NCBI GenBank assembly: GCA_030248295.1
Contig: JASANH010001117.1
Span: 124,001 to 188,000 of the forward strand
Origin: Mesodorylaimus sp. YZB2_4
Taxonomy: Eukaryota > Nematoda > Enoplea > Dorylaimida > Dorylaimidae
DNA length: 64,000 nucleotides
Direction: 5' to 3'
The notes beneath the pieces are model-generated. The model saw only the letters and a list, made by a program, of their open reading frames with translations. It ran no database searches and was not told the origin of the DNA. Shown here one piece after another: positions 3,438-19,565 of the stretch (the stretch's first letter is position 1; every line of letters starts with the position of its first letter). Both the position numbers and the translations under genes were made by a program.

Positions 3438-19565
<16,128 letters not shown>

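What the first reader, a model, noticed from the sequence alone, without database searches (positions are those of the whole stretch)
6308..6331. 24-nt phase-0 micro-exon in myosin II loop 1, parallel to vertebrate alternative inserts
Exactly eight codons are flanked by good splice sites and sit between two phase-0 exon borders at the point where vertebrate non-muscle II-B and II-C carry regulated loop 1 inserts. Loop 1 length affects ADP release and motor speed. If it is alternatively spliced here, regulated loop 1 splicing is either ancient or arose twice. The residues PPRNADGM include two prolines, unlike a simple linker.
Basis: partly seen in the sequence, partly recalled or inferred. Interest (0 to 1): 0.75.

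Follow-up and report, generated by a model that had tools for sequence, protein, structure and literature searches.

The report
Conserved micro-exon in myosin II loop
A tiny 24-base exon sits at the speed-tuning loop of a cell-movement motor gene in an unnamed small-genome animal, and the gene's ancient sister carries a matching one, so it looks like a real, selected exon and probably an optional one, much like optional inserts known at the same spot in vertebrates.

Summary
Window 6308-6331 is a 24-nt, phase-0 exon (PPRNADGM) in a non-muscle myosin II (NM II) heavy-chain gene, directly before GELE in loop 1. A splice-site pair as good occurs in 12 of 2000 shuffled introns, in frame and open in 3.

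New evidence: a second NM II gene in the same genome (L009) has a 27-nt counterpart (PPRSIENII) in the same intron slot and phase. The two genes look saturated at silent sites (39.3% of 229 fourfold sites identical), yet 18 of 19 template positions match (0 of 20000 shuffles). The exon is therefore very probably real and selected.

Both micro-exons have weak acceptors, usable donors and a GCAYG (Rbfox-type) motif 11-13 nt upstream. That favours a regulated cassette, but without RNA a constitutive exon is not excluded. Five striated-type myosin genes keep the phase-0 intron, only 52-64 nt long.

Such inserts are known in vertebrate NM IIB/IIC, and loop-1 alternative exons in muscle myosin of scallops and a ctenophore. 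This is a new member of a known kind. The species stayed unidentified, so 'ancient or arose twice' is open.

The parts
3438..18705 (+). Non-muscle myosin II heavy chain gene, coding exons 2-37 of the hand-set model (1903 residues; the 3' end continues beyond and was not modelled)
   Evidence: model; phmmer best hits MYH11 and MYH10 motors; Pfam Myosin_head exons on C176
5736..5850 (+). Exon before: P-loop helix and first part of loop 1, ends ..GASTPVK, phase 0; donor gtaatggt (5.5 bits leave-one-out)
6274..6278 (+). Candidate branch site CTAAC, starting 34 nt upstream of the micro-exon (CTGAC about 32 nt upstream in the sister gene)
   Evidence: motif match only
6297..6301 (+). GCACG (Rbfox/FOX-1-type GCAYG) starting 11 nt upstream of the micro-exon; the sister gene has GCATG starting 13 nt upstream
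   Evidence: 2 of 34 other acceptors of the gene have GCAYG within 30 nt; post hoc
6308..6331 (+). 24-nt micro-exon, PPRNADGM, phase 0/0, inserted in loop 1
6332..6340 (+). Donor gtaagtgct, identical over 9 bases in the sister gene
6440..6532 (+). Exon after: [31 protein letters not shown]; strong acceptor (14.0 bits, fitted score)

Best explanation
A genuine, selected micro-exon that adds eight residues (PPRNADGM) to loop 1 of a non-muscle myosin II motor, most likely as a cassette exon. Default skipping gives a 16-residue loop (..GASTPVK-GELE); inclusion, in some cells or stages, gives 24 residues (..[19 protein letters not shown]). The longer, proline-containing loop beside the nucleotide pocket would change ADP release and so the speed or duty ratio of the motor. 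Splicing control probably acts at the weak acceptor, where a T-rich tract is separated from the AG by a GCAYG element that an Rbfox-type protein could occupy. Shown: exon anatomy, position, and a counterpart in an anciently duplicated sister gene. Inferred: alternative use, which form is the default, direction of the kinetic effect, and the regulator.
For: Anatomy exact. The sister NM II gene (L009 minus strand 6514-6488, contig C65) has PPRSIENII, 27 nt, phase 0/0, same slot. Over 760 codons aligned by tblastn the two genes are 85.7% identical in protein, but 39.3% of 229 fourfold sites are identical, against 31.7-40.3% for the five striated-type genes; dS itself could not be computed. The window's micro-exon start (10 nt) plus donor (9 nt) used as template scores 18/19 in the sister intron; 0 of 20000 shuffles, 0 of 33 other introns of the window gene, 0 of 212 window tiles and 0 of 396 locus tiles (the two micro-exons masked) reach that. 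blastn of the two intron regions puts its best hit (35/47, E 0.001) on the micro-exon and its borders. Acceptors are weak in both (4.6, -5.1 bits), donors good or average (10.7, 8.5), the next acceptors stronger (14.0 fitted, 9.6). GCAYG just upstream in 2 of 2 micro-exons against 2 of 34 other acceptors (Fisher p 0.0095). Loop-1 length effect: PMC3912159 passages; NM IIC 8-aa insert gives higher motility and ATPase, PMC10480317 passages.
Against: No RNA reads, so neither inclusion nor skipping has been seen. The GCAYG test and the template lengths were chosen after looking, on two copies. A Smith-Waterman shuffle test of the two intron regions is weaker (5 of 300 shuffles reach the observed score), and a global MAFFT alignment of the two regions did not line the micro-exons up. 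The 10-aa NM IIB insert changes kinetics only slightly (PMC10480317), so the effect may be small. Loop 1 without the exon is already 16 residues, against 12 in the NM IIB chain without insert.
Confidence: 0.65

Rival explanations
1. Constitutive micro-exon: every transcript of both NM II genes includes it, and loop 1 is simply encoded with one very short exon.
For: Good or average donors, CTAAC/CTGAC branch-like sites, open frame and a counterpart in both genes; short exons occur in this gene (28-nt exon 4592-4619).
Against: Acceptors are weak (window: 3 of 34 others lower; sister: lower than all 34), while the competing downstream acceptors are stronger; length and sequence of the insert drift (8 vs 9 codons, PPR shared), as expected of an optional loop insert.
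Confidence: 0.3
2. Pseudo-exon or relic: splice-site-like sequence not used in mature mRNA.
For: Weak acceptors; a comparable pair arises in 12 of 2000 shuffles.
Against: Start, frame, slot and donor kept between two genes with saturated fourfold sites, 0 of 20000 shuffles.
Confidence: 0.03
3. On origin (not exclusive with the above): survival of a bilaterian NM II loop-1 cassette shared with vertebrate B1/C1, rather than an independent gain.
For: Same position next to GELE, similar length (8-9 vs published 8, 10 or 16 aa), GCAYG motif here and NeuN/Rbfox3-promoted N30 inclusion in mouse (PMC7582472 and PMC4557629, passages); the intron itself is shared with five striated-type genes of this genome.
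Against: No similarity of insert sequence is known; loop-1 splicing was looked for and not detected in mouse NM IIA (PMC10480317); no outgroup or relatives could be fetched; the motif lies upstream here, whereas the vertebrate N30 enhancer is downstream (recalled).
Confidence: 0.12

Closest known systems
Vertebrate NM IIB1 (N30 exon, 10 or 16 aa) and NM IIC1 (8 aa) loop-1 inserts
   Same: Same protein class, same insertion point at the 25/50-kDa junction, similar length; N30 is a 30-nt optional exon (PMC4557629; PMC10480317; PMC3535348; passages)
   Different: Here alternative use is unproven; two copies in an unnamed small-genome animal; acceptor-proximal GCAYG
Smooth muscle MYH11 loop-1 insert
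   Same: Extra residues end directly at GELE (..QGPSFSY-GELEKQ in the 6xe9 and 1br2 chains)
   Different: Vertebrate smooth-muscle gene; different residues. That these are the 7-aa optional insert is recalled, not looked up
Muscle Mhc loop-1 alternative exons of scallops and the ctenophore Mnemiopsis
   Same: Splicing changes loop-1 length; longer loop linked to faster ADP release (PMC3912159 passages)
   Different: Mutually exclusive longer exons in striated-type genes; here a single small exon in NM II, while five striated-type genes of this genome have only a 52-64 nt intron there
Bilaterian neural micro-exons (SRRM3/4 type; recalled)
   Same: Length a multiple of 3 and at most 27 nt, weak acceptor
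   Different: UGC near the acceptor in the window copy (-12) but about 40 nt away in the sister; tissue unknown

Membership tests
NM II loop-1 cassette exons (vertebrate B1/C1 kind) | In a non-muscle class II myosin heavy chain | tested here: met
   Best PDB matches are MYH11 and MYH10 chains (E about 1e-128 to 1e-127), then MYH9 and MYH14 (about 1e-122); striated and amoeba myosins at 1e-97 to 1e-93 (best 60 of 103 shown). Non-muscle versus striated in this genome was judged by identity, without a tree
NM II loop-1 cassette exons (vertebrate B1/C1 kind) | Insertion directly before GELE, phase 0/0 | tested here: met
   phase of the vertebrate exons is recalled
NM II loop-1 cassette exons (vertebrate B1/C1 kind) | About 8-16 residues | tested here: met
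   8 and 9 residues; published lengths
NM II loop-1 cassette exons (vertebrate B1/C1 kind) | Alternative inclusion seen in RNA | not testable with these tools
   no RNA reads
NM II loop-1 cassette exons (vertebrate B1/C1 kind) | Rbfox motif (UGCAUG) in the downstream intron promotes inclusion (recalled) | tested here: inconclusive
   In 5851-7024 TGCATG lies at 6135 (upstream intron) and 6714 (one intron further downstream); 23 on the window's + strand, so about 0.4 expected there; GCAYG next to the acceptor in both copies; an Rbfox gene search did not complete
Mutually exclusive loop-1 exons of muscle Mhc | Two or more interchangeable exon copies | tested here: not met
   no further in-frame cassette candidate (acceptor >=4, donor >=6 bits, 6-150 nt) in the introns of the window gene; an exon with an acceptor as weak as the sister's would be missed
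Neural micro-exons (SRRM3/4-dependent) | UGC just upstream of the acceptor | tested here: inconclusive
   present in the window copy, not near the acceptor of the sister
Neural micro-exons (SRRM3/4-dependent) | Neural inclusion; eMIC-domain gene in the genome | not tested
   PF15230 search not answered

The most novel reading that the evidence does not exclude
Rbfox-type control of a loop-1 micro-exon in non-muscle myosin II predates the split of vertebrates from this lineage: an ancestral cassette, kept in both NM II copies here and in vertebrate NM IIB/IIC, has toggled motor kinetics since early animals.
Probability: 0.07. Interest if true: 0.75.

Novelty: new member of a known kind. Interest (0 to 1): 0.45.

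Why it matters
Loop 1 influences how fast ADP leaves myosin II. If two anciently diverged NM II genes of a small-genome animal both keep an optional insert there, then tuning this loop by splicing is a recurrent or old solution, and the animal offers two natural copies in which the control elements can be found by comparison.

Tried and rejected
Chance splice-site pair: rejected through the sister-gene copy. SRRM4-type UGC element: not shared by the two copies. Mutually exclusive or further cassettes, including at loop 2: none found in the window gene at the thresholds used, and the sister's loop-2 intron is about 58 nt (sequence). Relatives elsewhere: one scan of genome contigs and two of viral contigs confirmed none; a second genome-contig scan gave four myosin-like pieces (44-55% identity) in a Verrucomicrobiaceae MAG, presumably eukaryotic contamination, which I did not examine. 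Proline-directed kinase idea (TPVK / TPTR just before the junction in both copies): kept as a remark; the Cdk5 paper's text has no 'insert', 'loop' or 'splice'. Literature on invertebrate NM II loop-1 splicing: judged by titles and abstract starts, the listings (15 listed of 17 found; 20 of 50; 15 of 1,136) showed no report; the library lacks most subscription papers, so this is no proof of absence.

The species was not identified: the COX1 search gave 15 matches on 11 contigs whose loci could not be cut out, and the follow-up fetch did not complete. Searches for 18S (RF01960), Rbfox (PF12414), SRRM (PF15230) and for further DNA copies of the loop-1 region (asked once) did not complete. The count of myosin genes rests on a search that scored 65 of 105 candidates, so it is a lower bound.

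Full report
What was checked. The window (C176:124001-188000 of an unnamed 145-Mb genome in 1067 contigs) carries on its + strand a non-muscle myosin II (NM II) heavy-chain gene. I set 36 coding exons by hand from 3438 to 18705; they join in frame into 1903 residues without a stop, with GT-AG introns; the last part of the tail was not modelled. One coding exon is 24 nt: 6308-6331, [32 protein letters not shown], phase 0 at both ends, between an exon ending ..GASTPVK (5850) and one starting GELEQQLLQ (6440).

Is it loop 1 of NM II? Among solved structures the best matches of the motor are MYH11 and MYH10 chains (E about 1e-128 to 1e-127), then MYH9 and MYH14 (about 1e-122); striated-muscle and amoeba myosins follow at 1e-97 to 1e-93 (best 60 of 103 shown). 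In the alignment with an NM IIB chain without insert (4pd3) a 12-residue gap covers STPVK and seven of the eight micro-exon residues, and chicken smooth-muscle myosin has ..QGPSFSY directly before the same GELE. So the insertion point is the known loop-1 site.

Is it more than chance? Weight matrices were trained on the gene's other 35 donors and 34 acceptors. The micro-exon donor scores 10.7 bits (9 of 35 others higher, leave-one-out); its acceptor scores 4.6 (3 of 34 lower). In 2000 dinucleotide shuffles of the intron, 12 hold a pair as good 6-60 nt apart and 3 of these are in frame and open; the other introns of the gene (8037 interior bases) hold none. A looser scan of the model's introns for further in-frame cassettes (acceptor >=4, donor >=6 bits, 6-150 nt) found none, though it would miss an acceptor as weak as the sister's.

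The sister gene. A tblastn of the motor against the 15 other stretches fetched around myosin matches shows one more NM II gene (L009, C65, minus strand) and five striated-type myosin II genes (L010-L014); the others match less well. The split into types rests on identity and motifs, not on a tree, and the gene count is a lower bound. In the L009 slot lies ..gacgtttag|CCGCCGAGGAGCATCGAGAATATCATA|gtaagtgct.., PPRSIENII, 27 nt, phase 0/0, between ..TTPTR and GELEQQ. Over 760 aligned codons the two genes share 85.7% of residues but 39.3% of 229 fourfold sites, within the range of the five striated-type genes (31.7-40.3%); dS was not computable. Silent positions thus look saturated, and unselected intron sequence should not be alignable. 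A permissive blastn of the two intron regions still gives its best hit (35/47, E 0.001) on the micro-exon and its borders. Against this, a global MAFFT alignment of the two regions did not pair the micro-exons, and in a Smith-Waterman shuffle test 5 of 300 shuffles reached the observed score. With the window's micro-exon start (10 nt) and donor (9 nt) as template, plus an open frame in between, the sister intron scores 18 of 19; 0 of 20000 shuffles of it, 0 of 33 other introns of the window gene, 0 of 212 window tiles and 0 of 396 tiles of the fetched loci (micro-exons masked) reach this; the best of those controls is 15. The template lengths were chosen after the match had been seen. I take the exon as real and under selection.

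The intron is old. The five striated-type genes have a phase-0 intron at the same place, two codons before the shared LE, 52-64 nt long, with no room for a cassette. Kollmar and Hatje report that motor-domain intron positions of muscle Mhc genes are conserved across bilaterians, with ambiguity after loop 1 (PMC3912159, passages).

Alternative or constitutive? No RNA is available here. Indirect signs favour optional use: the acceptors are weak in both genes (4.6 and -5.1 bits; the 34 others start at 5.9 fitted, 2.5 leave-one-out), the next acceptor is stronger (14.0 fitted, and 9.6), and insert length and residues drift (8 vs 9; PPR shared). In both genes a CTAAC/CTGAC site and a T-rich tract are followed by GCACG or GCATG shortly before TTTAG (start at -11 and -13); 2 of 34 other acceptors of the gene have GCAYG within 30 nt, and 0.049 is expected from intron density (Fisher p 0.0095). 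The test was devised after seeing the sequences. GCATG also lies at 6136 and at 6327 (the end of the micro-exon), and at two other places in the sister's intron region. C. elegans FOX-1 uses GCAUG and GCACG equally well in splicing repression of xol-1 (PMC7787662, passages), and the mouse NM IIB N30 exon is promoted by NeuN/Rbfox3 with PSF/SFPQ (PMC7582472, PMC4557629, passages). Whether this genome has an Rbfox gene was asked and not answered.

What it would do. Without the exon the loop between VA and GELE is 16 residues (20 in the sister); with it 24 (29). The net charge by K/R minus D/E stays +3. Published work ties longer loop 1 to faster ADP release and sliding (PMC3912159), the 8-aa NM IIC insert to higher ATPase and motility, and the 10-aa NM IIB insert to only a small increase (PMC10480317, passages). 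I infer a faster-cycling isoform, with low certainty on size.

Known or new. Loop-1 inserts are established in vertebrate NM IIB and NM IIC (PMC3535348; PMC10480317) and loop-1 alternative exons in scallop and ctenophore muscle myosin. My ten paper searches (several listings capped) showed no report of an invertebrate NM II loop-1 micro-exon; the library is partial. I file this as a new member of a known kind, with alternative use unproven. That the organism is an animal is inferred from its set of non-muscle and striated-type myosins; the species, and so the choice between one old origin and several, stays open.

Noticed in passing
G000 contigs C65 (L009), C10, C7, C53, C219, C9: Besides two NM II genes the genome has at least five striated-type myosin II genes on five contigs, each with a 52-64 nt phase-0 loop-1 intron.
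   Followed up: partly
L015 and L023 (C478:351-620 minus and 21159-21428 plus): The same myosin exons seem to occur twice on one 37.8-kb contig in inverted orientation, either an inverted duplication or an assembly artefact.
   Followed up: no
G000 C73, C273, C741, C47 and seven other contigs: 15 COX1 matches lie on 11 contigs, each with TGA in frame, which looks like many nuclear copies of mitochondrial DNA.
   Followed up: no
L024-L027: A Verrucomicrobiaceae MAG (H1_MAG_00039) in the genome collection holds myosin-motor-like stretches, so it is probably contaminated with a eukaryote.
   Followed up: no
window 21273-22328, 30848-31579, 32265-33002, 34973-35470, 45406-45813, 47850-48194, 60273-61433: Open frames that look, by eye and recall only, like an HMG-box/TFAM-type protein, a Rab GTPase, a BRCC36-type protease, RhoGDI, a VHS-domain protein, protein disulphide isomerase and a chromatin-remodelling subunit (no family search was run).
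   Followed up: no
window 5839-5850 and its L009 counterpart: A proline-directed kinase-type motif (TPVK, TPTR) sits directly before the micro-exon junction in both NM II genes.
   Followed up: partly
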